A DNA stretch of 20,951 nucleotides, from positions 1 through 20,951 of the forward strand of contig JAUWCW010000008.1 in NCBI GenBank assembly GCA_030609125.1, in the 5' to 3' direction. Positions within the stretch are counted from its first letter, which is position 1. The number at the start of each line of letters is the position of its first letter. Under the pieces are notes generated by a model, which saw only the letters and a list, made by a program, of their open reading frames with translations, was not told the DNA's origin and made no database searches. Both the position numbers and the translations under genes were made by a program. Shown here piece by piece: positions 4,009 through 14,578 of this stretch. Source of the stretch: JAUWCW01 sp030609125 [NCBI: Candidatus Rokuibacteriota bacterium] (GTDB lineage: Bacteria; JAUVQV01).

Positions 4009-5571
4009 TTAGAAGCCCCTGGGTTTCGCTTTGGGGGAGGTCCTCTTCCGGCCCTTTTCAGCGGGCCGGGCAGCGAGCATCTTGTTGACGGCCACGAGGT
4101 AGGCGCGAACCGAGGCCTCGATGATATCCGTGGAGGCCGCCTTTGCCGGGACTTCCCAATCCCCGAACCTGACCTTCACCTTCGCCTCGCCGAGAGCGTC
4201 CTTCCCCGAGGTGACGGCCGTGATGCTGTACTCCGCCAGCTTCCCCGGCAGACCGGTGATTTTGTCGATAGCCCGGTACGCCGCGTCCACCGGGCCGTCC
4301 CCCGTGGAGGAATCCTGGAAGGTCTCGTTCTCGCGCCGGAGGATGACCGTCGCGGTCGGAATGGTGCTGCTGCCGCTGTTGGTGTTGAGATACTCGAGCC
4401 GGAAAATCTCAGGCACCGTAACGATCTCCTGAGCGACGATGGCGATCAGGTCCTCATCGAAGACCTCCTTTTTCTTGTCGCACAGGTCCTTGAATCTTTC
4501 GAAGGCACTGTTGACCTGCTCCTTCGAGAGCTTGAGGCCGAGGCTCTGCAGCCGCTTCTGCAAGGCATGCCTGCCGGAGTGCTTTCCCAGGACGAGGTGG
4601 CTCTGCGGGAGACCAACCGATTCGGGTGTCATGATCTCGTAGGTTCGGGCGTCCTTGAGCATCCCGTCCTGATGGATCCCCGCCTCGTGGGCGAAGGCGT
4701 TCTTCCCGACAATGGCCTTGTTGGGCTGGACGCCAATGCCCGTTATCCGGCTGAGGAGCCTGCTGGTCTTGTAGATCTCCTCCGCCTTCACCCCCGTGGA
4801 TACCTGAAAGAGGGCCTTGCGGGTTTTGACGGCCATGATTATCTCTTCCAGGCTGGCGTTGCCTGCCCGTTCGCCGATGCCGTTGATGCTGCCCTCGATC
4901 TGGCCCGCCCCGTTCTGAACCGCAGCCAGGGAATTTGCCACGGCGAGGCCGAGGTCGTTGTGGCAGTGAACGGAGAGTACCGCCGCGTCTATGTTGGGCA
5001 CTCTCTCACGGATCTTGCGAATGAGTTCTCCGAACTCGGAAGGGATGGCGTAGCCGACGGTGTCGGGAATGTTGATCGTCGTCGCGCCGGCGTCGATGGC
5101 CGCCTCCACGACCTGACAGAGAAAGTCCACGTCGCTGCGGAAGGCGTCTTCGGCGGAGAATTCCACGTCGTCGCAGTAGCCTTTGGCTCTCTTTACGGCC
5201 TTGACGGTTCTACGGAGGATTTCCTTGCGGGTGGTCTTGAACTTGTGGAGGATGTGTATGTCGGAAGTAGCTATGAACGTGTGGATCCGCGGCCGGGACG
5301 CGTCCTTGACGGCATCCCAGCAGCGATCGATGTCGCCCGGTACGGCCCTGGCGAGACCGGCGATGGTCGGCTTGCGGACTTCGCGGGCTATGGTGCGGAC
5401 CGCCTCGAAGTCCCCTTCGGATGAAATGGGGAAGCCCGCTTCGATGATGTCCACGCCGAGGCGGGCCAGCTGCTTGGCCATGGTCAGCTTTTCGCCGATG
5501 TTCATGGAAAAGCCCGGAGACTGCTCCCCGTCCCTCAGTGTAGTGTCGAACAGATAGATGCGTCGGGCCAT
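4009..5571 (-). CDS. leuA: 2-isopropylmalate synthase
   Basis: LeuA condenses acetyl-CoA with 2-oxoisovalerate, the first step specific to leucine. The 520-residue product has a DRE-TIM metallolyase barrel at about residues 5-275, with [10 protein letters not shown] at 8-17 (Arg13, Asp14) and the metal ligands His202 and His204 in VHCHNDLG. Linker subdomains follow, then a C-terminal leucine-sensing regulatory domain at about residues 385-500 and a basic tail. The length and the regulatory domain favour LeuA over citramalate or homocitrate synthases. The frame stays open far upstream, but the ATG at 5571 ([17 protein letters not shown]) is the family start and has GGGAGGG just before it; the upstream frame only shadows pssA. 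It is the last gene of the ilv-psd-pssA-leu unit, 17 bp after pssA. Confidence 0.97.
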
Positions 5572-5588: not shown

Positions 5589-6362
5589 TCACGATAGTGG
5601 CCGCTGGTTTGCCTTCCTCCGCTTCTCCCCGGATACCGCCAGCAGGCCCTTTCTCAAGAGCGGTGCGAGCACCATCTCCACGGGGCCGGAGAGCACGTAG
5701 ACCACGGCCATGGTGAAGAGCGTGATGCGGGGCCGCAGGGCGATGATGGAAAAAAGGAAAACAGCTGAAACAAGAAAGGAGAAGGGGTGCTTCTGGCGCA
5801 TCCCGAGTTCTTTGAAGCTGCGGTACCTTACGGTGCTGACCATGAGGAAGGCCAGAAGATAGGCCTGGAGGATGAAGACGATCCCCAGGGGCCGGTCGAA
5901 GACGACCGGGGTCTTCAGCAGGAGAATGGTCGTTGCCGCACAGGCCGAGGCGGCTGGAATGGGCAGGCCGATGAACCACTTGCGGTCGCTTGTGTCCGCC
6001 TGAACGTTGAAGCGTGCAAGCCGCAGGGCGCCGCAGGCGACTATGAGAAAGGCCGCCACCCATCCTGCCCTGCCGTAGGGCTGCAGGGCCCAGAGGTACA
6101 TGAGGACAGCCGGGCCGGCGCCGAAAGAGAGAAGATCCGCGAGGGAGTCGAACTCCATGCCGAAACGGCTGCTCGACCCGGTGAAGCGGGCAATCTTGCC
6201 GTCGAAGATGTCCAGGATCCCGGCAAGAACAAGGGCCACGGCGGCCCTCTCGAACTCGTGGTTGACCGCCGCGATGATGGCGTAGAAACCGGCGCAGAGA
6301 TTTCCTGCCGTCAGAAGATTCGGAAGGATGTAGACTGTCTTCTTGACCTGTTTCGTCTTCAT
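5589..6362 (-). CDS. pssA: CDP-diacylglycerol--serine O-phosphatidyltransferase
   Basis: PssA makes phosphatidylserine from CDP-diacylglycerol and L-serine at the inner membrane. The protein has 257 residues. The CDP-alcohol phosphatidyltransferase signature DGxxARx8GxxxDxxxD is complete, with Asp54, Gly55, Ala58, Arg59, Gly68, Asp72 and Asp76. Several hydrophobic membrane segments are spread over the length (for example about 11-50, 95-110, 130-150, 160-180 and 200-235). The next step is catalysed by the product of the adjacent psd gene. The start has an unusually poor ribosome-binding site (GCTGGA directly against the ATG), and a TAGAAT motif lies about 10 bp upstream, so initiation may be by coupling to psd or from a very short leader. 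Confidence 0.95.
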
Positions 6363-6386: not shown

Positions 6387-7001
6387 CTAATTCCAATGGG
6401 CTATGATATCAGCCCCGCCCTTCACGCGGTCGCCGATCTTCACTGCCACCGGGGCGCCGGCGGGAAGATACGTGTCCACCCTGGAGCCGAAGCGGATGAG
6501 TCCGTAGCGCTCGCCCTGCCGGCCCCTCTGTCCCGGCTTGATCCGGCAGATAATGCGCCGCGCAATGAGGCCGGCCACCTGGACGACCCGCACCGTCCCC
6601 CTGGAGTGCACGATGGTGATGCCGCACCGCTCGTTCTCGTCCGAGGCGATCGTGTTCCAGGCGGCGAGGAAGCGCCCCCTGCGGTAGGAGACATCCGTTA
6701 TCTCACCCGAGGCGGGCAGGCGGTTGACGTGAACGTCGAAGATGGAGAGAAATATGCCGACCTTGACCCCCCCGTCCGGCTGGGGAAGAAGTTCGATCAC
6801 CTTGCCGTCCGCCGGAGAGACCAGTACGTCGTCGCCGGCGGGGACGCTGCGCTCGGGATCCCTGAAGAACCAGATGATGAAAGCCGTCAGGACAAGTGCT
6901 GCGATGGATGCCCACGGAACCTTCAGGGCGAGGCAGAAGCCGAAGAGTGCGGCGGCGCCCAGTATGAAAGGCCAGCCCTCCCTGGCGATCGGCAGTCTCA
7001 C
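6387..7001 (-). CDS. psd: phosphatidylserine decarboxylase, short pyruvoyl type
   Basis: Psd decarboxylates phosphatidylserine to phosphatidylethanolamine at the membrane. The 204-residue proenzyme is of the short bacterial/archaeal type (about 200-230 residues, against about 300 for E. coli Psd). Two hydrophobic segments lie near the N-terminus (about 11-26 and 30-46), followed by FFRDPER, SPADGKV and IFLSIFDVHVNRLP, all typical of the family. The self-cleavage site is in RFGSRVD; cleavage before Ser173 would create the pyruvoyl group and separate beta and alpha chains. Translation starts at a GTG that overlaps the ilvC stop by four bases (GTGA), indicating translational coupling. pssA follows after 24 bp, so the two successive enzymes are made together. 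Confidence 0.94.
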   Translation of the reverse strand: MRLPIAREGWPFILGAAALFGFCLALKVPWASIAALVLTAFIIWFFRDPERSVPAGDDVLVSPADGKVIELLPQPDGGVKVGIFLSIFDVHVNRLPASGEITDVSYRRGRFLAAWNTIASDENERCGITIVHSRGTVRVVQVAGLIARRIICRIKPGQRGRQGERYGLIRFGSRVDTYLPAGAPVAVKIGDRVKGGADIIAHWN

Positions 7002-8005
7002 TCTATCCCCTGGCTTTCCCTGCCCGGGGGATGGATCAGTTTCCTGATCCTCGCGCCGACCTGTTCAATGGGCTTGTCCCTCTGCCGGTCGAGGAGTGAC
7101 GAAAAGACTCTGCGGCCCGAGCGGTTCTCTTCCATCCACTCTTCGGCGAATTTGCCCGAGCGGATCTCGGAGAGAATCTTCTTCATCTCCTCCCGGACCT
7201 CGGGTCCAATGACGCGCGGTCCCCTGGTGACGTCGCCGAACCTGGCGGTGTTTGAGATAACATCCCTCATCCCCGAAATGCCTCGGAGGTGGATCAGGTC
7301 GGCGGTGAGCTTCACTTCGTGGACACATTCGAAATAGGCTGCTTCGGGGGGATAGCCGGCGTCGACGAGGGTCTCGAATCCGGCCGCTATCAGGTGCGTA
7401 AGGCCGCCGCAGATCACGGCCTGCTCACCGAAGAGGTCCGTCTCGCATTCGTCCCTGAAAGTGCTCTCGAAGATTCCGCCCCGCCCGCCTCCGATGGCCG
7501 AGGCGTACTGGAGGGCGGTGTCGCGGGCGTGACCGGAGAAATTCTGCTCAACGGCGACGAGCATGACCAGGCCTCGGCCCCGCCGGAACTCGCTCCTCAC
7601 CTGGTGTCCCGGCCCCTTGGGGGCGACCATGACGACGTCGAGACCGGGGTGAGGCTCTACCTGCCCGAAGTGAAGGGAGAAACCGTGTGCCACAAGGAGG
7701 GTCTTTCCCTCTGCGAGGGATCCGGCCAGATGCCTTCTGTAGGTCTCTCCGTGCTCCTCGTCGGGAATAAGCAGGGCGACCACGTCCGCCTGCGCGGCGG
7801 CTTCCTCGATGCCGAGGACCTGAAAACCGGCCTCAAAGGCCTTCTCCCGGCTGCTGCTGCCTGCCCGCAGGCCTACCGTGACGGACAGTCCACTGTCGCG
7901 GAGATTCTCGGCGTGGGCGCTTCCCTGGCTGCCGAAGCCGATGACGGCGATGGTTCTGCCGCTCAGGGGATTCGCACCGATATCGTTGTCGAAAAGGAGT
8001 TTCAC
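6998..8005 (-). CDS. ilvC: ketol-acid reductoisomerase, class I (first of two in the window)
   Basis: IlvC isomerises and reduces acetolactate or acetohydroxybutyrate with NAD(P)H and Mg2+. The 335-residue protein is a standard class I KARI. It has a Rossmann domain with GFGSQG (23-28) and a knotted C-terminal domain in which Lys130, Asp190, Glu194, Glu226, Glu230 and Ser251 occupy the classical active-site positions. The cofactor loop after the second strand reads GLRAGSSSREKA, with the Arg and Ser residues that normally contact the 2'-phosphate of NADPH. It starts at GTG, 18 bp after ilvN, with no good Shine-Dalgarno, so it probably depends on coupling. Gene order ilvB-ilvN-ilvC marks it as the housekeeping copy. 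Confidence 0.97.
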   Translation of the reverse strand: MKLLFDNDIGANPLSGRTIAVIGFGSQGSAHAENLRDSGLSVTVGLRAGSSSREKAFEAGFQVLGIEEAAAQADVVALLIPDEEHGETYRRHLAGSLAEGKTLLVAHGFSLHFGQVEPHPGLDVVMVAPKGPGHQVRSEFRRGRGLVMLVAVEQNFSGHARDTALQYASAIGGGRGGIFESTFRDECETDLFGEQAVICGGLTHLIAAGFETLVDAGYPPEAAYFECVHEVKLTADLIHLRGISGMRDVISNTARFGDVTRGPRVIGPEVREEMKKILSEIRSGKFAEEWMEENRSGRRVFSSLLDRQRDKPIEQVGARIRKLIHPPGRESQGIE

Positions 8006-8023
8006 CGGTATTTTTTCAGGGTT

Positions 8024-8509
8024 TCAGCCGGTCCGCCCGTCTCGGCCGATGGCGACCTTCCCGGTACGGACCAGCTCCTTGATGCCCAGGGGTCTGAGGA
8101 TCTCGATGACAGCCTGAATCTTGCCGGCATCTCCCGTTGCCTCCAGGGTGTATGACCTGGAGCTGACATCCACCACCTTGCAGCGAAAGATATCCACGAT
8201 GCCGAGGAGCTCGGCCCGGTTCTCCGCCGTCGCCTGGACTTTGATCAGCACGAGTTCCCGGTCGATGAAGTTCACTCCCGTGAGGTCACTGACCTTTATG
8301 ACATCGACCAGTTTGTTGAGCTGCTTGGTGATCTGCTCGATGATCTGCTCGTCGCCCCGGGTGACGATGGTCATCCGGGAAACGGAGGGGTCCTGTGTCT
8401 CCGCCACGGTCAGGCTGTCGATGTTGAACCCGCGTCCGGAAAAGAGGCCCGACACACGTGACAGGACTCCGAACTTGTTGGCTACCAGAACCGATATAGT
8501 GTGCCGCAT
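8024..8509 (-). CDS. ilvN: acetolactate synthase small (regulatory) subunit
   Basis: IlvN (also called IlvH) is the valine-sensing regulatory subunit of acetohydroxyacid synthase and binds IlvB. The 161-residue length is standard. An N-terminal ACT domain covers about residues 3-75 (HTISVLVANKFGVLSRVSGLF, RGFNIDSL), followed by the C-terminal domain (GVNFIDRELVLIKV, ILRPLGIKELVRTGKVAI). The ATG at 8509 is preceded by GGAGGGAGGAAAGGACAGAGG, a strong ribosome-binding region. It lies 63 bp after ilvB and 18 bp before ilvC in the same unit. Confidence 0.97.
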   Translation of the reverse strand: MRHTISVLVANKFGVLSRVSGLFSGRGFNIDSLTVAETQDPSVSRMTIVTRGDEQIIEQITKQLNKLVDVIKVSDLTGVNFIDRELVLIKVQATAENRAELLGIVDIFRCKVVDVSSRSYTLEATGDAGKIQAVIEILRPLGIKELVRTGKVAIGRDGRTG

Positions 8510-8572
8510 CCTCTGTCCTTTCCTCCCTCCGCGGTCATCGCGGGATCCCTTGCTCCGGCTGTTACGGCGCTG

Positions 8573-10258
8573 TCAGGCAAGAAGCATGTTCTTGATCGAC
8601 GCTCCGGCCGGCACCATGGGGTAGACGTTCTCCTCCCGGGAAACGCGAAAATCCATCAGCACCGGATGGGGCAGGGAGAAGGCCTTCTCCAGCGTGGGCA
8701 CCACTTCGTGCGGCTTCGTCGCCCGAAGGCCGACGGCGCCGTAGGCCTCTGCGAGCTTGACGAAATCCGGGCTGCACGTGAGGCACGTCGATGAGTAACG
8801 CTTATTGTAAAAGAGCTGCTGCCACTGCCTCACCATGCCGAGGAACTGGTTGTTGAGTATGGCGATCTTCACCGGAAGCCGGTACTGAACGGCGGTCATC
8901 ATCTCCTGGATATTCATCTGGATGCTTCCGTCGCCGGCGATGTCGATGACGAGCTTGTCCGGGAAAGCCACCTGGGCGCCGATGGCGGCGGGAAAGCCGT
9001 AGCCCATGGTTCCCAGGCCCCCGGAGGTGAGGAGCGTCCTCGGCTTGGTGTACTTGAAGTACTGGGCCGCCCACATCTGGTTCTGGCCCACCTCGGTGCT
9101 GATGATGCAGTCCCCGCCGGTGATCTCGTTGATCTTCTCGATGACGAACTGGGGCTTGATCTCCCGTTTGCCCTGTTTGTAGGCCAGCGGGTAGGTTTCC
9201 TGCCACTCCCTGATCTGGTTCAGCCAGGGTGTGTGCCGGGATTTCCAGCCGGTTTTGATCTCCTTCAGGTGGGGAAGAAGATCCCTGAGGACGTTTTTCA
9301 CGTCGCCCACCACGGGGAGGTGGGCGTGAACGTTCTTCGAAATGGAAGTGGGGTCGATGTCGACCTGCAGGATCTTCGCCCCGGGAGCGAACTCGTCGAG
9401 CTTGCCCGTCACCCGGTCGTCGAAACGGGCCCCCAGGGCGACGATCAGGTCCGTGTCGGAAACGGCCATGTTGGCCCTGTAGGTTCCGTGCATGCCGAGC
9501 ATGCCGAGAAAGAGCGGGTGCGTGCCGGGGAATCCTCCCAGGCCCATGAGAGTTGAGGCGACGGGAGTCTGGGTGTGGGTGGCCAGCTTCTGCACCTCGG
9601 CAGCGGCGTTGGAGGCGATGACTCCCCCGCCGATGAGGATGACGGGGCGCTCCGCCTTGGCGATCATGGAGGCGGCCCGGCGGATCTGTTTTATGTGCCC
9701 CTTGTAGGTGGGGTTGTAGCTCGGGATGTGGGCTTTTTCCGGGTAGTGCGGCTCGGTTCTGGACTGGAGCATATCTTTCGGCAGGTCGATCACCACCGGC
9801 CCCGGACGCCCCGTGGTGGCCACGTAGAAGGCCTCCTTTATCGTCCTGGCCAGGTCCTTCACGTCCCGCACCAGGTAGCTGTGCTTGGTGCAGGGGCGGG
9901 TGATGCCGATGATGTCGGCCTCCTGAAAGGCGTCGTTGCCGATCATTCCCGTCGGCACCTGGCCGGTGAGGACCACCAGGGGAATGGAGTCCATGTAGGC
10001 CGTTGCGATCCCGGTGACGGTGTTCGTCGCGCCCGGACCGGAGGTGACCAGGGCGACGCCGGGTTTGCCCGAAGCGCGGGCGTAGCCGTCGGCGGCGTGG
10101 ACGCCCCCCTGCTCGTGACGGACGAAGATCAGTCTGATGTTGCTGTCGAAAAGGCGGTCGAAGATATCAAGGACCACTCCGCCGGGGTAGCCGAAGATAT
10201 CCTTTACCTTCTCGCGAACCAGACTTTCAATGAGTATTTCAGCGCCGGATTTTTTCAT
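8573..10258 (-). CDS. ilvB: acetolactate synthase large (catalytic) subunit
   Basis: IlvB is the thiamine diphosphate- and FAD-dependent catalytic subunit that makes acetolactate or acetohydroxybutyrate from pyruvate. The 561 residues cover the whole enzyme. The N-terminal domain has catalytic Glu49 in VRHEQGG, followed by a central FAD/regulatory domain. The C-terminal domain carries the ThDP motif, from GDGSIQMN to AILNNQ. It works with the ilvN product encoded next. The ATG at 10258 has AGGGGAA just upstream. It is the second gene after the DUF465 gene in a unit read from the promoter near 10,600. Confidence 0.98.
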   Translation of the reverse strand: MKKSGAEILIESLVREKVKDIFGYPGGVVLDIFDRLFDSNIRLIFVRHEQGGVHAADGYARASGKPGVALVTSGPGATNTVTGIATAYMDSIPLVVLTGQVPTGMIGNDAFQEADIIGITRPCTKHSYLVRDVKDLARTIKEAFYVATTGRPGPVVIDLPKDMLQSRTEPHYPEKAHIPSYNPTYKGHIKQIRRAASMIAKAERPVILIGGGVIASNAAAEVQKLATHTQTPVASTLMGLGGFPGTHPLFLGMLGMHGTYRANMAVSDTDLIVALGARFDDRVTGKLDEFAPGAKILQVDIDPTSISKNVHAHLPVVGDVKNVLRDLLPHLKEIKTGWKSRHTPWLNQIREWQETYPLAYKQGKREIKPQFVIEKINEITGGDCIISTEVGQNQMWAAQYFKYTKPRTLLTSGGLGTMGYGFPAAIGAQVAFPDKLVIDIAGDGSIQMNIQEMMTAVQYRLPVKIAILNNQFLGMVRQWQQLFYNKRYSSTCLTCSPDFVKLAEAYGAVGLRATKPHEVVPTLEKAFSLPHPVLMDFRVSREENVYPMVPAGASIKNMLLA

Positions 10259-10326
10259 TTCCCCTGCCTTCGGGTGTGGTTGTCAAAAAAGAGACCTTCA
10301 AGAGTTCCAGTGCGTTGCCGGGCCGC

Positions 10327-10548
10327 CTATTCCGGCCGGGCCTGGCGGACCATGCGGGACATCTGATCTTTCCCGCTGAGCTTGAGCTTCTGGATCGTTT
10401 TGCGCTGCAGCTCCTGTTCCGGGGTCAGATAATGGACCTTGTCGAGCTCCTCGAGTTGTCTCTCGTATTTCAAATGCTCCTCGTAGAGTTTCTGAAACTC
10501 TACGTTCTCTTTGAGGAACAGTTGGACGGTTGGATTCTCCTTGTCCAT
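10327..10548 (-). CDS. DUF465 (YdcH-like) small protein, first gene of the ilv operon
   Basis: This is a 73-residue, charged, mostly helical protein with no signal peptide or membrane segment. The heptad-like stretch FLKENVEFQKLYEEHLKYER, then LTPEQELQRKTIQKLKLSGKDQM, is the pattern of the DUF465/YdcH family, small proteins predicted to form helical hairpins; their function is not established. A GTG six bases upstream keeps the frame open, but it overlaps the AGGAGG Shine-Dalgarno, which is correctly spaced for the ATG at 10548, so I chose the ATG. A strong promoter lies about 33 bp upstream, making this the leading gene of DUF465-ilvB-ilvN-ilvC-psd-pssA-leuA. Whether it has any role in that pathway is unknown. 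Confidence 0.85.
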   Translation of the reverse strand: MDKENPTVQLFLKENVEFQKLYEEHLKYERQLEELDKVHYLTPEQELQRKTIQKLKLSGKDQMSRMVRQARPE

Positions 10549-10580
10549 CGTCACCTCCTGGAAGATCTGTTCTGTGGCGC

Positions 10581-10609
10581 ATGCTAATTGAAAAGGAGTT
10601 CTCTGTCAA
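10581..10609 (-). promoter_or_regulatory. sigma-70 promoter of the DUF465-ilvBNC-psd-pssA-leuA unit
   Basis: On the minus strand a perfect -35 TTGACA (10604-10609) is followed after exactly 17 bp by TAGCAT (10581-10586, 4/6 to TATAAT). The predicted start is about 25 bases before the DUF465 ATG, so there is no room for a leader peptide or attenuator. It is the best -35 seen in the window and lies in the only real gap between tsaB and the ilv genes. Confidence 0.6.
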
Positions 10610-10648
10610 TGCCGGCCGGGAGGGGCAGTCTGCGTTGAAGACCGGAAT

Positions 10649-11419
10649 TTAACACGCTTTTTTCTTGTTCTCTTCTGCCCGCCGTCTCTCCCTCGATCTT
10701 TTCGCCTTGCGTTTCACATTGGCTTCGGCGTCGGAGGGGCGGAGGTAGAGCGGGACCAGGGTCTGCGTCTCGGAGGGGCGCCCTTCCGCGAGAGAGGCCT
10801 CCCCCCTCAGGGCGACCACCGCGGCCCTCGGGGCGTTCTGGTGGACCGGCGCCAGGGAGACTCTCCGCTTCCCGCGGCTCGGCAGAAGATCCGTGAGCTC
10901 CGCGGGAAGATCTCCGAGGACGAGCGTTTCAGGCGGGAGAGACGCCGCCAGCTCCGCCGGTGTCATGATCTGCTCCCGTCGCACCCTGACGGGTTTCGTG
11001 CCGGAGGCGCGGAAGAGGGCGGCGAAGACCTCCCCCCGCCTGGCATCGATGACCGCACAAGTCAGTCCCCTGCCGGGTGAGGCGTTGGCCGCCAGGACCT
11101 CCAGGGTGGGGATGCCGAAGAGGGGCACGCCGAGAGAGAAGGCGAGCCCTTTGGCGGCGGCGACCCCGATACGCAGGCCCGTGAAGGAGCCCGGACCGAC
11201 GGAGACGCTCACCGCCGTCAGGTCCTGTACCGTAAGGGATGCCGCCTTCAGGAGCGTCTCAACCGAGGGCAGGAGCCTTTCGGAGTGGGAGCGGGGATTG
11301 GTGAGCGACAACTCGCCCAGGAGGGCTCCGTTGGAGCAGAGAGCAACGCTCCCGCGGGGAGTGGCGGTTTCGATCCCCAGAACCGCCCCCGAGGGGCTGC
11401 TCTTTTTAGGAGACGGCAT
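10649..11419 (-). CDS. tsaB: tRNA threonylcarbamoyladenosine biosynthesis protein TsaB (YeaZ)
   Basis: TsaB is the ASKHA-fold partner of TsaD in the complex that places t6A at position 37 of ANN-decoding tRNAs. The 256-residue product has the N-terminal signature GAVLGIETATPRGSVAL, then SHSERLLPSVETLL and the family hallmark VSVGPGSFTGLRIGVAAAKGLA. The C-terminal part includes LVPLYLRPSDAEANVKRKAK and then a strongly basic tail ending NKKKAC. The frame is open about 770 bp upstream, but that part shadows the second KARI gene; the ATG at 11419, 11 bp after the KARI stop, gives the usual N-terminus. The ribosome-binding site is weak (CTTCCGG), consistent with coupling to the upstream gene. Confidence 0.94.
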   Translation of the reverse strand: MPSPKKSSPSGAVLGIETATPRGSVALCSNGALLGELSLTNPRSHSERLLPSVETLLKAASLTVQDLTAVSVSVGPGSFTGLRIGVAAAKGLAFSLGVPLFGIPTLEVLAANASPGRGLTCAVIDARRGEVFAALFRASGTKPVRVRREQIMTPAELAASLPPETLVLGDLPAELTDLLPSRGKRRVSLAPVHQNAPRAAVVALRGEASLAEGRPSETQTLVPLYLRPSDAEANVKRKAKRSRERRRAEENKKKAC

Positions 11420-11430
11420 CCGGAAGCCGT

Positions 11431-12531
11431 CTAGTTTGCTTTCCTGCCGGCTACGCCCCTGGTCTTCCTGGTGACGGCCCTGGCCTTTTCCTTCGGGCGA
11501 AGCTTGCGAACCGCTGCACCGGTCTGCCACATCTCGGAGTTGCCCATGACGGCCAGCTCCTTGCCGAGGACGTCCCTGTAATTGCTCTTGCCGACGGAGC
11601 GGATGACCCGTCGCGTCTCTTTTCCCGACTTGACCGATTTGTAGAGCTCCTTGAACACGGGCAGCGTGGCCTTCTTGAATTTCGGCTTCCAGTCCAGCGC
11701 CCCCCGCTGGGCCGTGGCGGAGCAGTTGGAATACATCCAGTCCATGCCGTTCTCGTCCACGAGCCGGATGAGGCTCTGGGTCAGTTCCTCCACGGTCTCG
11801 TTGAAGGCCTCGCTGGGAGAGTGCCCGTTCTTTCTGAGCACGTCGTACTGGGCTTCCATGATGCCCGCCAGGGCGCCCATCAGAACACCCCGCTCGCCCG
11901 TCAGGTCGCTGTAGACTTCGTTCTGGAAGGTCGTCGGGAAAAGGTACCCCGACCCGATTCCGATGCCCAGGGCAAGGCAGCGCTCTTCCGCCCTCCCCGT
12001 GGCGTCCTGGAAGACGGCGTAGCTGGAGTTGATGCCGGCGCCGGAGAGGAAATTGCGCCGCACCGAGGTACCGGAACCCTTCGGGGCGACCATGATGACG
12101 TCCACTCCCTCGGGGGGAATGACCCCGGTCTGGTCCTTGTAGACGATGGAGAAGCCGTGAGAGAAGTAGAGGGCGTCGCCGGGGTCGAGACACTTTTTGA
12201 GCTTCGGCCAGAGAATTCGCTGGGCCGCGTCGGTGACGAGAAACTGGACAATCGTCCCTCGCCGGGCCGCCTCTTCCACGTCGAAAAGGGTCTTGCCGGG
12301 GACCCAGCCGTCTTTCCTGGCCCGGTCCCAGTCATTCCGAAAGGCCTTGGCCTGCCCGATAATGACGTTGAAACCATTGTCCTTGAGGTTCAGCGCCTGC
12401 GCGGGCCCCTGGACGCCGTAACCGATTATGGCTATTGTTTCCTTCTTCAACACCCTGCGGGCGCGGGTCATGGGAAACTCTTTCCGGATGACCACTTTTT
12501 CCTTCACACCGCTGAAATTGATTACTGCCAT
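11431..12531 (-). CDS. ilvC: second ketol-acid reductoisomerase, divergent Bacteroidetes-like type
   Basis: This 366-residue protein is a second KARI, only distantly similar to the one encoded at 6998-8005. The opening MAVINFSGVKEKVVIRKEFP, GYGVQGPAQALNLKDNGFNV, DGWVPGKTLF and NGMDWMYSNCSATAQRGALD resemble what I recall of the KARI group of Bacteroidetes. Active-site residues are kept: Lys151, Asp209, Glu213, Glu245, Glu249 and Ser271. The cofactor loop reads GQAKAFRNDWDRA, with Asp67 where NADPH-type loops end in Ser. It ends in a basic tail (about 345-366). The track start 30 bp earlier is rejected because GGAGGAAGCA directly precedes the ATG at 12531. It lies between the usp gene and tsaB, outside the ilv operon. 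Confidence 0.93.
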   Translation of the reverse strand: MAVINFSGVKEKVVIRKEFPMTRARRVLKKETIAIIGYGVQGPAQALNLKDNGFNVIIGQAKAFRNDWDRARKDGWVPGKTLFDVEEAARRGTIVQFLVTDAAQRILWPKLKKCLDPGDALYFSHGFSIVYKDQTGVIPPEGVDVIMVAPKGSGTSVRRNFLSGAGINSSYAVFQDATGRAEERCLALGIGIGSGYLFPTTFQNEVYSDLTGERGVLMGALAGIMEAQYDVLRKNGHSPSEAFNETVEELTQSLIRLVDENGMDWMYSNCSATAQRGALDWKPKFKKATLPVFKELYKSVKSGKETRRVIRSVGKSNYRDVLGKELAVMGNSEMWQTGAAVRKLRPKEKARAVTRKTRGVAGRKAN

Positions 12532-12573: not shown

Positions 12574-13041
12574 TCAGGGCATGACAAACTCCCGCTGCTC
12601 CGACTGGACCGAAAGGACGGGGCAGGGGGCCTTGCGGACGACTTTTTCCGCCGTGCTGCCGAAAATGATGTGCTCGAAGCCGGAGCGGCCGTGGGTGCCG
12701 ATGACGATGAGGTCTATGTCCTCCTCCTTCGCAAAGCGGATGATTTCGAGAAAAGGCTCTCCCTGCCTGATGACGGGCTCCCAGTCCAGGCCTTCCGCGT
12801 CTTCCGAACGGACGACTGTCTTCAGGCGCTTTCTTGCCTCGTCGGCCATCTCCTTCTCCAGGGATTCGCGGGAGATTACCCTGGGCAGGTTGTACCCCTC
12901 CGTGAAAATTTTCTCGCTCACGACGTGGAGGACGTACGCCTTGGCCTTGAACTCCCTGGCAAAGGAAATCGCGTACCTGGCGGCTTCCTCGGATGTTTCC
13001 GAAAAATCGGTAGGAAAAAGGATCTTCTTCAGTTTAATCAT
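12574..13041 (-). CDS. universal stress protein, UspA family
   Basis: The 155-residue, single-domain USP protein starts MIKLKKILFPTDFSETSEEA, the usual first strand and helix. It has the ATP-binding signature G-2x-G-9x-G-S at Gly115, Gly118, Gly128 and Ser129 (GTHGRSGFEHIIFGST), so it is probably the nucleotide-binding kind, followed by the closing strand APCPVLSV. The family is soluble and linked to stress, starvation or metabolic state; the precise role here is unknown. The ATG at 13041 is preceded by GGGAGG at good spacing; the longer frame from 13083 has no such site. The divergent KARI gene follows after 42 bp, so the two are likely co-transcribed, perhaps from a promoter in the 125-bp gap upstream. 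Confidence 0.93.
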   Translation of the reverse strand: MIKLKKILFPTDFSETSEEAARYAISFAREFKAKAYVLHVVSEKIFTEGYNLPRVISRESLEKEMADEARKRLKTVVRSEDAEGLDWEPVIRQGEPFLEIIRFAKEEDIDLIVIGTHGRSGFEHIIFGSTAEKVVRKAPCPVLSVQSEQREFVMP

Positions 13042-13109
13042 GTGTGCCTCCCGACTCTCAAATTGGAATTGATGGAGCGCCACGTTCTGCAGGTACTTAG
13101 ACCAACACT

Positions 13110-13166: not shown

Positions 13167-14537
13167 TCAGCCCACGTTGTTGTAGGCCCGGGCGCGAAAG
13201 CCGACGCCAAGCTCGTCCGTGGCGATGCGGCGGCAGGCTTCGATGTCGACCCCCGGCGCGGCAACAGCCGTGGCGATCACCTCCGGGACGTAGCGGCGGG
13301 CCTCGCTGATGAACTCCTTCACGGCAGTGAAGGCGCTCTCTCCGCCCTCGGGCCGGCAGAGGCGAAGATACTCGCCGGGGCCGGAGGCGTTGAGGCTCAC
13401 CGAGAGGGCGTCGACGATCCCCTTCATTTCGGGAAGAACGTCCCGGCCGAGAAAGAGCTTCGACTGGCCGTTGGTGTTGATGCGGATCCTCGCGCCCCGC
13501 TCCTTGAGGGCCGCTGCCGCCGCCCTCACGACGTCCCACCGCAGGAGGGGCTCGCCGTATCCGCAAAAAACGATTTCCCGGTACGGGCCGACGTCGCCGA
13601 CAGCGTCGAGAATCTCCAGGGCCGTCGGTTCACCTTCGAGACGCAGATTGTGTCCCTTGACAACGGGCCTCTTCTCGCGGCCGCAGAAGACGCAGCGGTT
13701 CGAGCAGCGGTTGGTGACGTTGATGTAGAGTGAGTCGCGGATGGGGTAGGCGATTTGCCCCGCATCGTCCCCCCGGAAAAGGCCGAAGAGGGACCGGGCG
13801 TTGAAGGTCGTGATGCGTTGGACGTCGTCCTCCGACAGGCCCTTCAGTTCCGCCACGGCCCTCGCCGTTTCCGCCACGTAGGCCGGTTCGTTGCGCTTAC
13901 CGCGGAAGGCCTGGGGCGCGAGATAGGGAGCGTCGGTTTCGACGACGAGGGCTTCCACCGGTATGGCGCGGACAACGTCCGGGAGCTTCGAATTGGGGTA
14001 GGTCAGCGGTCCGGCAATGGAAATGAGAAAGCCCATGCCGATTGCCCTCCGGGCGGTCTCGATCGATCCGGAGTAGCAGTGCATGACGCCGCCGACTTCA
14101 GAGGCCTTCTCGCGCTGCAGGATGTCGAGGGTCTCCTCCTCGGCGCTGCGGGAGTGGATGATGAGCGGTTTGCCGACGCGGCGGGCGAGTTCCAGGTGGC
14201 GCAGAAAGAGCTCCAGCTGTCTGTCGTGAGGCGCATAGTCCCTGAAAAAGTCGAGGCCTGTCTCGCCGACGGCAACGACCTCCGGATCGGCGGCGCCCTC
14301 GGAGATCACCCTCCACGATGCTTCGGTGAAGACGCCGGCATCGTGCGGGTGGATGCCGGCGCTGATAGAGACGTTCTCGTTGCGGCCGGCGATCTCCCTG
14401 TTGCGCAGAAAGGAATCATCGTCGATGGAGACGCTGATGATGTGCCCCACGCCGGCCTCCCGCGCCCGGCGAAGCACGTCCTTCAGGTCCGGGGCGAACT
14501 GCTTCATGTCCAGGTGAGCGTGGGTGTCGATGAGCAT
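13167..14537 (-). CDS. TatD family metal-dependent hydrolase fused to a radical SAM domain
   Basis: This is one 456-residue reading frame with two enzymes. Residues 1-255 are a complete TatD-type amidohydrolase (putative 3'-5' DNase): HAH at 6-8, GIHPHD at 61-66, GETGLD with Glu92, His128, His153 in MHCYSGS, and Asp202 in ETDAPYLAP. Residues 268-456 are a compact radical SAM domain: NVTNRCSNRCVFCGR with the 4Fe-4S ligands Cys278, Cys282 and Cys285 (CxxxCxxC), then CGYGEPLLRWD (SAM binding), INTNG and SVSLNA. TatD-associated radical SAM proteins are known as a family, sometimes fused, but their substrate is not. The ATG at 14537 has GGAGAG upstream and gives the normal TatD N-terminus. It follows metG by 41 bp, a common place for tatD genes. 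Confidence 0.92.
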   Translation of the reverse strand: MLIDTHAHLDMKQFAPDLKDVLRRAREAGVGHIISVSIDDDSFLRNREIAGRNENVSISAGIHPHDAGVFTEASWRVISEGAADPEVVAVGETGLDFFRDYAPHDRQLELFLRHLELARRVGKPLIIHSRSAEEETLDILQREKASEVGGVMHCYSGSIETARRAIGMGFLISIAGPLTYPNSKLPDVVRAIPVEALVVETDAPYLAPQAFRGKRNEPAYVAETARAVAELKGLSEDDVQRITTFNARSLFGLFRGDDAGQIAYPIRDSLYINVTNRCSNRCVFCGREKRPVVKGHNLRLEGEPTALEILDAVGDVGPYREIVFCGYGEPLLRWDVVRAAAAALKERGARIRINTNGQSKLFLGRDVLPEMKGIVDALSVSLNASGPGEYLRLCRPEGGESAFTAVKEFISEARRYVPEVIATAVAAPGVDIEACRRIATDELGVGFRARAYNNVG

Positions 14538-14578
14538 GGGTCTCTCCGGAAAGGACAGCGCGGAGCCGGGGGCGCCGG

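What the first reader, a model, noticed from the sequence alone, without database searches (positions are those of the whole stretch)
6998..12531. Two unrelated-looking ketol-acid reductoisomerases within 5 kb
The ilv operon encodes a standard class I KARI (335 residues). Another 366-residue KARI of clearly different lineage is encoded 3.4 kb upstream on the same strand, in a usp-tsaB context. Both keep all the metal and substrate residues (Lys, Asp, Glu, Glu, Glu, Ser), so neither looks dead. The second resembles the Bacteroidetes-type KARI from memory, suggesting acquisition by transfer rather than duplication. Most bacteria carry one ilvC.
Basis: partly seen in the sequence, partly recalled or inferred. 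Interest (0 to 1): 0.6.

Follow-up and report, generated by a model that had tools for sequence, protein, structure and literature searches.

The report
Native and borrowed ilvC genes together
This bacterium carries two very different copies of one enzyme for making valine, leucine and isoleucine: its own copy, now changing unusually fast, and a well-kept foreign-type copy, probably caught part-way through one gene replacing the other.

Summary
Two intact ketol-acid reductoisomerase (KARI) genes are present as described. ilvC1 (6998-8005, 335 aa) lies in an ilvB-ilvN-ilvC-psd-pssA-leuA operon whose order recurs in other families. KARI2 (11431-12531, 366 aa) lies between usp and tsaB. At 34% identity they are not recent paralogues. 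KARI2 belongs to the class I lineage of a mitochondrial KARI and Bacteroidales ilvC; nearest are Fibrobacterota and Kiritimatiellota proteins. The 'standard' copy is the odd one: ilvC1 has the longest ingroup branch of its class, while IlvB, IlvN and LeuA of the same genome do not. And the only other genome of the phylum held has a KARI2-type gene as its sole KARI, with no ilvC between ilvN and psd. The two KARI2-type genes sit at different places and do not group, but the test is borderline (p 0.03 and 0.08). I read this as xenologous displacement of ilvC in progress; which enzyme carries the flux is inferred. No PanE domain was found in either genome, so a ketopantoate role is possible. Ordinary in kind, mildly interesting.

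The parts
6998..8005 (-). ilvC1: class I KARI of the ilv operon, 335 aa, GTG start, fast-evolving
   Evidence: TIGR00465 395.7 bits; end branch 1.31 against median 0.34; no Shine-Dalgarno pairing (+0.4 kcal/mol)
11431..12531 (-). KARI2: class I KARI of the mitochondrial/Bacteroidales/PVC-group lineage, 366 aa, between usp and tsaB
   Evidence: TIGR00465 308.8 bits; best solved relative 7toc, a mitochondrial KARI; 75-84% to the best 80 public loci
8024..8509 (-). ilvN, acetolactate synthase small subunit
   Evidence: NF008864, TIGR00119
8573..10258 (-). ilvB, acetolactate synthase large subunit
   Evidence: TIGR00118; groups with G001 at 100/99
6387..7001 (-). psd, phosphatidylserine decarboxylase (name recalled from the sequence, not scanned against a library); overlaps the end of ilvC1 by 4 bases
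   Evidence: ORF; matches in the same place in other genomes
5589..6362 (-). pssA, CDP-diacylglycerol-serine O-phosphatidyltransferase
   Evidence: TIGR00473 over its cut-off
4009..5571 (-). leuA, 2-isopropylmalate synthase (start placed from the family match)
   Evidence: NF002086, TIGR00973
10649..11419 (-). tsaB (start placed at ATG 11419), directly 3' of KARI2
   Evidence: TIGR03725; sequence
12574..13083 (-). usp, universal stress protein, directly 5' of KARI2
   Evidence: PF00582

Best explanation
Xenologous gene displacement caught with both genes present. Shown: ilvC1 sits in an ilvB-ilvN-ilvC-psd-pssA-leuA order that recurs in other families; KARI2 is a distinct lineage lying between usp and tsaB, which are adjacent in the other genome of the order (G001); ilvC1, unlike ilvB, ilvN and leuA, has an accelerated branch; G001 has no ilvC1 and carries a KARI2-type gene after leuA. 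Inferred: KARI2 came by transfer from a donor related to PVC-group or Fibrobacterota bacteria and, being well conserved with a strong ribosome-binding site, now carries most of the acetohydroxy-acid step. ilvC1, made redundant, is under relaxed constraint but still encodes intact catalytic motifs, so it is a reserve or a specialising enzyme rather than a pseudogene. Which enzyme works in the cell is not shown.
For: Operon order around standard ilvC genes of other families. In G001 psd starts 22 bases after the ilvN stop, and G001 has one KARI_C match, KARI2-type, 79% identical, after leuA. ilvC1 end branch 1.31, median 0.34, in 59 rows. Same-taxa control without G001: ilvB 0.31, ilvN 0.27, leuA 0.54 (medians of the others 0.52, 0.54, 0.52), ilvC1 1.05 (median 0.30, max 0.57); repeated with 13 taxa, ilvC1 0.98, next 0.61. 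ilvC1 departs at 15 of 109 conserved columns, against median 2 and max 9 in 54 proteins from genomes without a KARI2-type gene; KARI2 departs at 2 of 224 (80 rows: median 2, max 10). Anti-Shine-Dalgarno pairing: KARI2 -9.5, ilvC1 +0.4 kcal/mol. Less selected check: in the KARI_C search of 386 genomes, by my reading only one genome whose best E is below 1e-50 (G302) has a weaker best match than ilvC1.
Against: Acceleration could be adaptive, not relaxed; no close relative was available for dN/dS. The catalytic motifs of ilvC1 are intact. The reference rows were mostly top-scoring matches and lean towards conserved proteins. Of the four other genomes with both types whose standard copy was compared, one (L125 of G088, Goldiibacteriota) is ordinary, rank 42 of 59. 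G001 is one genome (95% complete), so the loss there rests on one assembly, although the empty place is seen directly. Independent arrival of KARI2 in the two families is weakly supported (AU p 0.031 in 83 rows, 0.085 in 50). 33 of 80 inner branches of the KARI2 tree are open and its bootstrap had not settled, so the donor is not fixed. GC3 and codon use of both genes lie within the range of their neighbours, so composition gives no sign of transfer.
Confidence: 0.6

Rival explanations
1. Division of labour: both enzymes are needed. KARI2 does the branched-chain step and ilvC1 has specialised, for example as the ketopantoate reductase that replaces a missing PanE in pantothenate synthesis, or for one of the two acetohydroxy acids.
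For: No ApbA_C (PanE) domain match in G000 or G001 (0 of 2; rings in 8 of 14 controls), while panB, panC and panD are present in G000 and in G001 (panC; panB, panD). IlvC replaces PanE in Buchnera by complementation, and is cited there as doing so in C. glutamicum (PMC4306246, passages). ilvC1 keeps its catalytic motifs while diverging.
Against: G001 also lacks an ApbA_C match and has a single KARI, so a second KARI is not required. Three of the nine control genomes with PanC lack an ApbA_C match, so the absence is common; and C. glutamicum does give an ApbA_C match, so the domain is a rough proxy for PanE. PanG and gaps of the 92% complete genome are not excluded.
Confidence: 0.17
2. Single old acquisition of KARI2 in the ancestor of the order, later moved within the cluster in one lineage; ilvC1 was then lost in G001 only. 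This differs from the best explanation only in the number of arrivals.
For: Both KARI2-type genes lie beside the same gene cluster. A joint clade is not rejected in the 50-row test (p 0.085).
Against: 79% identical to each other, while G000's is 84% identical to that of an unclassified bacterium (L041) and G001's 84% to a Verrucomicrobia sequence (L099). G001 groups with a Verrucomicrobia sequence at 95/81 and 99/85; joint clade p 0.031 with 83 rows; different insertion places.
Confidence: 0.3
3. Recent duplication within the genome.
For: None found.
Against: 34% identity; different nearest relatives.
Confidence: 0.01
4. Binning or assembly artefact: KARI2 belongs to another organism.
For: G000 is a fragmented assembly, 376 contigs, 2.15% contamination.
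Against: Both genes are on one contig, and KARI2's two neighbours, usp and tsaB, are neighbours of each other in G001; codon use fits.
Confidence: 0.02

Closest known systems
Class I KARI, IlvC (TIGR00465, NF004017)
   Same: ilvC1: length, domains, catalytic motifs, operon place
   Different: Longest ingroup branch; 15 of 109 conserved columns changed; best match in 386 genomes outside its own is 58% identical
Mitochondrial (fungal, by recall) and Bacteroidales-type class I KARI: 7toc; ilvC of Parabacteroides and Phocaeicola
   Same: KARI2 aligns over 346 residues with 7toc at 421.5 bits, about twice the next solved KARI, 211.4; 62-64% to the two Bacteroidales genes
   Different: Closer to PVC-group and Fibrobacterota members (75-84%); lies outside the ilv operon
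Two-ilvC genomes of Streptomyces (ilvC1/ilvC2; PMC4353338, abstract and passages seen)
   Same: Two KARI in one genome; functional divergence between copies
   Different: There the S. coelicolor copies are 97% identical paralogues; here they are old separate lineages

Membership tests
KARI (IlvC) | Score above the curated TIGR00465 cut-off | tested here: met
   395.7 and 308.8 bits against 226.15
KARI (IlvC) | Conserved metal-binding Asp/Glu and substrate Ser | tested here: met
   Motif positions
KARI (IlvC) | Isomeroreductase activity | not testable with these tools
   No enzyme data
Class I KARI | Single C-terminal domain, about 340 residues | tested here: met
   One KARI_C stretch each; 335 and 366 aa (class definition: PMC5940873, passages)
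Mitochondrial/Bacteroidales/PVC-group KARI lineage | KARI2 closer to this lineage than to standard class I | tested here: met
   421.5 bits to 7toc, 211.4 or less to the other 36 solved sequences listed
Recent paralogue pair | Each other's close relatives | tested here: not met
   34% identity
Xenologous gene displacement | Foreign-lineage gene present, native gene kept or lost in relatives | tested here: met
   Both in G000, native one absent in G001
Xenologous gene displacement | Direction and source of transfer resolved on a tree | tested here: inconclusive
   Low support in the KARI2 tree; AU p 0.031 and 0.085
Xenologous gene displacement | Foreign copy carries the function | not testable with these tools
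   Needs expression or knockouts; G001 is the indirect case

The most novel reading that the evidence does not exclude
After arrival of KARI2, the native operon ilvC1 has turned into a dedicated ketopantoate reductase that fills the missing PanE step, so the two roles of one ancestral dual-role enzyme have been split between a native and a transferred gene.
Probability: 0.1. Interest if true: 0.5.

Novelty: new member of a known kind. Interest (0 to 1): 0.33.

Why it matters
It is a readable intermediate of gene displacement in a core amino-acid pathway: two families of one order show the state with both genes and the state with the foreign type alone. Genomes with both types look uncommon: of the 80 genomes holding the best matches to KARI2, 4 also carry a standard KARI of over 200 bits. 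If the divergence proves adaptive, it would show how a transferred enzyme frees a native one to specialise.

Tried and rejected
Recent paralogy: rejected at 34% identity. Lineage-wide fast evolution as the cause of the long ilvC1 branch: rejected by ilvB, ilvN and leuA in the same taxa. ilvC1 as an in-place replacement from elsewhere: not excluded, but its nearest rows, G275 and G139 (96/92), have the same operon order and are also G000's nearest rows in the LeuA tree after G001; in the IlvB and IlvN trees G118 comes next instead. PanE absence as proof of specialisation: rejected, since G001 with one KARI lacks the domain too. ProC absence, to test a proline role: both genomes have ProC. Shared usp-tsaB context in the donors: in the 80 loci no usp match appeared, and the tsaB matches (27-37% identity, 46.2 bits or less, made without composition correction) I take as noise. 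Faster standard ilvC in two-type genomes in general: 5 rows against 54, one-sided Mann-Whitney p 0.0075, but two of the five are sisters (L126, L127), one is ordinary (L125), and the reference rows are biased to high scorers, so I do not claim it. Literature: in the listings I recognised no paper on a native plus mitochondrial-type KARI pair in one bacterium (searches returned none at all); only open PMC papers were searched and three were opened, in part.
Full report
What is there. On the minus strand the order is metG, tatD/radical-SAM, usp, KARI2, tsaB, a small ORF, ilvB, ilvN, ilvC1, psd, pssA, leuA (metG and psd are named by recall from their sequence, not by a library scan). ilvC1 is 335 aa with a GTG start and overlaps psd by 4 bases. 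KARI2 is 366 aa from the ATG at 12531, preceded by GGAGG. Both pass the KARI equivalog model TIGR00465 and have one N and one C domain. The own genome, 2.3 Mb in 376 contigs and 92% complete, has these two KARI_C matches and no other.

Two lineages. The proteins are 34% identical. Among solved structures KARI2's best relative is 7toc, a mitochondrial KARI (of a fungus, by recall), at 421.5 bits; the other 36 sequences listed score 211.4 or less. ilvC1 matches 7toc at only 148.6 bits and other bacterial KARIs at up to 421.9. By the group table, 64 of these 80 are titled Verrucomicrobiota (26), Kiritimatiellota (13), Lentisphaerota (7), Planctomycetota (7), Fibrobacterota (6) or Hydrogenedentota (5); the rest are Myxococcota (3), single titles of other phyla, or unplaced. 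In 19 of 80 an ilvN match lies within 700 bases upstream and in 6 of 80 a leuA match downstream, so in at least those genomes it looks like the operon KARI. Two Bacteroidales records have the type at 62-64%.

The native place. I fetched 8 regions around the closest standard ilvC genes in other genomes (L185-L192). All 8 show ilvB, ilvN and ilvC in that order; pssA follows in 8, psd was detected in 6, leuA in 7. One further genome with two KARIs, G047, differs: there leuA follows ilvC directly, without psd or pssA matches (L121). In G001, the only other genome of the phylum held and of the same order, the order is metG, tatD, usp, tsaB, ilvB, ilvN, psd, pssA, leuA, KARI. There psd starts 22 bases after the ilvN stop, leaving no room for an ilvC; the usp and tsaB frames are adjacent; and the sole KARI is KARI2-type, 79% identical, after leuA. 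So ilvC1 is in the old operon slot, absent in G001, and KARI2 interrupts usp-tsaB in G000.

One acquisition or two. IlvB and LeuA of G000 and G001 group with support 100/99, IlvN with 86/89. Their KARI2-type proteins do not group. G001's falls with a Verrucomicrobia sequence (95/81 in 83 rows; 99/85 in 50 rows). G000's falls weakly (86/86) with a Myxococcales-titled bin, Fibrobacterota and Kiritimatiellota. Holding the two together is rejected at p 0.031 in the large set but not in the small one (p 0.085). The bootstrap had not settled and 33 of 80 inner branches are open. Two acquisitions are the better reading, not an established one.

The native copy is the odd one. In a tree of 59 class I proteins ilvC1 has an end branch of 1.31 (median 0.34), the longest apart from the outgroup. 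In the same-taxa control without G001 (9 to 11 taxa by gene, quick trees), the G000 end branch is 0.31 for ilvB, 0.27 for ilvN and 0.54 for leuA, against medians of the others of 0.52, 0.54 and 0.52, but 1.05 for ilvC1 (median 0.30, max 0.57). ilvC1 departs at 15 of 109 columns conserved in at least 90% of 54 proteins from genomes without a KARI2-type gene; those 54 have a median of 2 and a maximum of 9; the standard copies of four other two-type genomes depart at 5, 7, 8 and 10. KARI2 departs at 2 of 224 columns (80 relatives: median 2, maximum 10; G001: 5). These reference sets were mostly top-scoring matches and so lean towards conserved proteins. A less selected check: among the genomes whose best KARI_C match is below 1e-50, by my reading only G302 has a weaker one than ilvC1. 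The catalytic motifs of ilvC1 are intact. Its ribosome-site pairing is the weakest of the 12 genes whose assumed start is a start codon (+0.4 kcal/mol; KARI2 -9.5). GC3 and codon use of both genes lie within the range of their neighbours, so composition shows no sign of a recent transfer.

How common. In 386 genomes, G000 and G001 included, 266 have a KARI_C match; by my reading of the table 13 have two. Ten of these 13 have best E-values of only 1e-22 to 1e-36, as expected for class II enzymes with two C domains, which I did not check genome by genome. Of the 80 genomes holding the best KARI2 matches, 4 also have a standard KARI of over 200 bits: G061 (bacterium Glo_18), G075 (Binatota), G088 (Goldiibacteriota) and G439 (Verrucomicrobia). 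Four others (G082, G085, G424, G451) have a weaker further match. In G061 and G088 the standard copy again lies between ilvN and pssA-leuA (L194, L196). The quality of those assemblies is not told, so contamination is possible.

Function. KARI2 most likely carries the branched-chain pathway, since a KARI2-type enzyme is the sole KARI found in G001; this is inference. Neither genome has an ApbA_C (PanE) match, while panB, panC and panD are there. IlvC can reduce ketopantoate: shown for Buchnera by complementation, and cited there for Corynebacterium glutamicum (PMC4306246, passages). C. glutamicum itself gives an ApbA_C match in the control, so that domain is only a rough proxy. Streptomyces KARI paralogues differ in substrate range (PMC4353338, abstract and passages). 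So ilvC1 may be redundant and decaying, or specialising. G001, if its assembly is complete here, shows that a second KARI is not needed for either task.

Verdict. Real, correctly observed, and best explained by a known process: transfer followed by displacement. The useful addition is that the operon copy is the one that has diverged, and that another family of the order shows the state without it.

Noticed in passing
13167-14540: One ORF carries both a TatD nuclease domain and the TatD-associated radical SAM domain (TIGR04038); a single match in G001 spans the junction in the same place.
   Followed up: no
10327-10554: Small minus-strand ORF (75 aa, GTG) between tsaB and ilvB with a DUF465 match below its cut-off.
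   Followed up: partly
L232 (G000) and L231 (G001): panB-panC-panD in a row in both genomes with no ApbA_C match found in either: the ketopantoate reductase step is open.
   Followed up: partly
L036 9485-11262 (G001): Two plus-strand ORFs (448 and 143 aa) without Pfam match between guaA and the KARI gene; the window has only 190 bases between guaA and leuA.
   Followed up: no
L121 and L122 (G047): Another genome with two KARI genes: one in ilvBN-leuA-leuC context, one far divergent (34-36% to the KARIs of the window).
   Followed up: no
G439 (genome of L090): A Verrucomicrobia-titled genome of 12.6 Mb with three KARI_C matches of different strength; may be a mixed bin.
   Followed up: no
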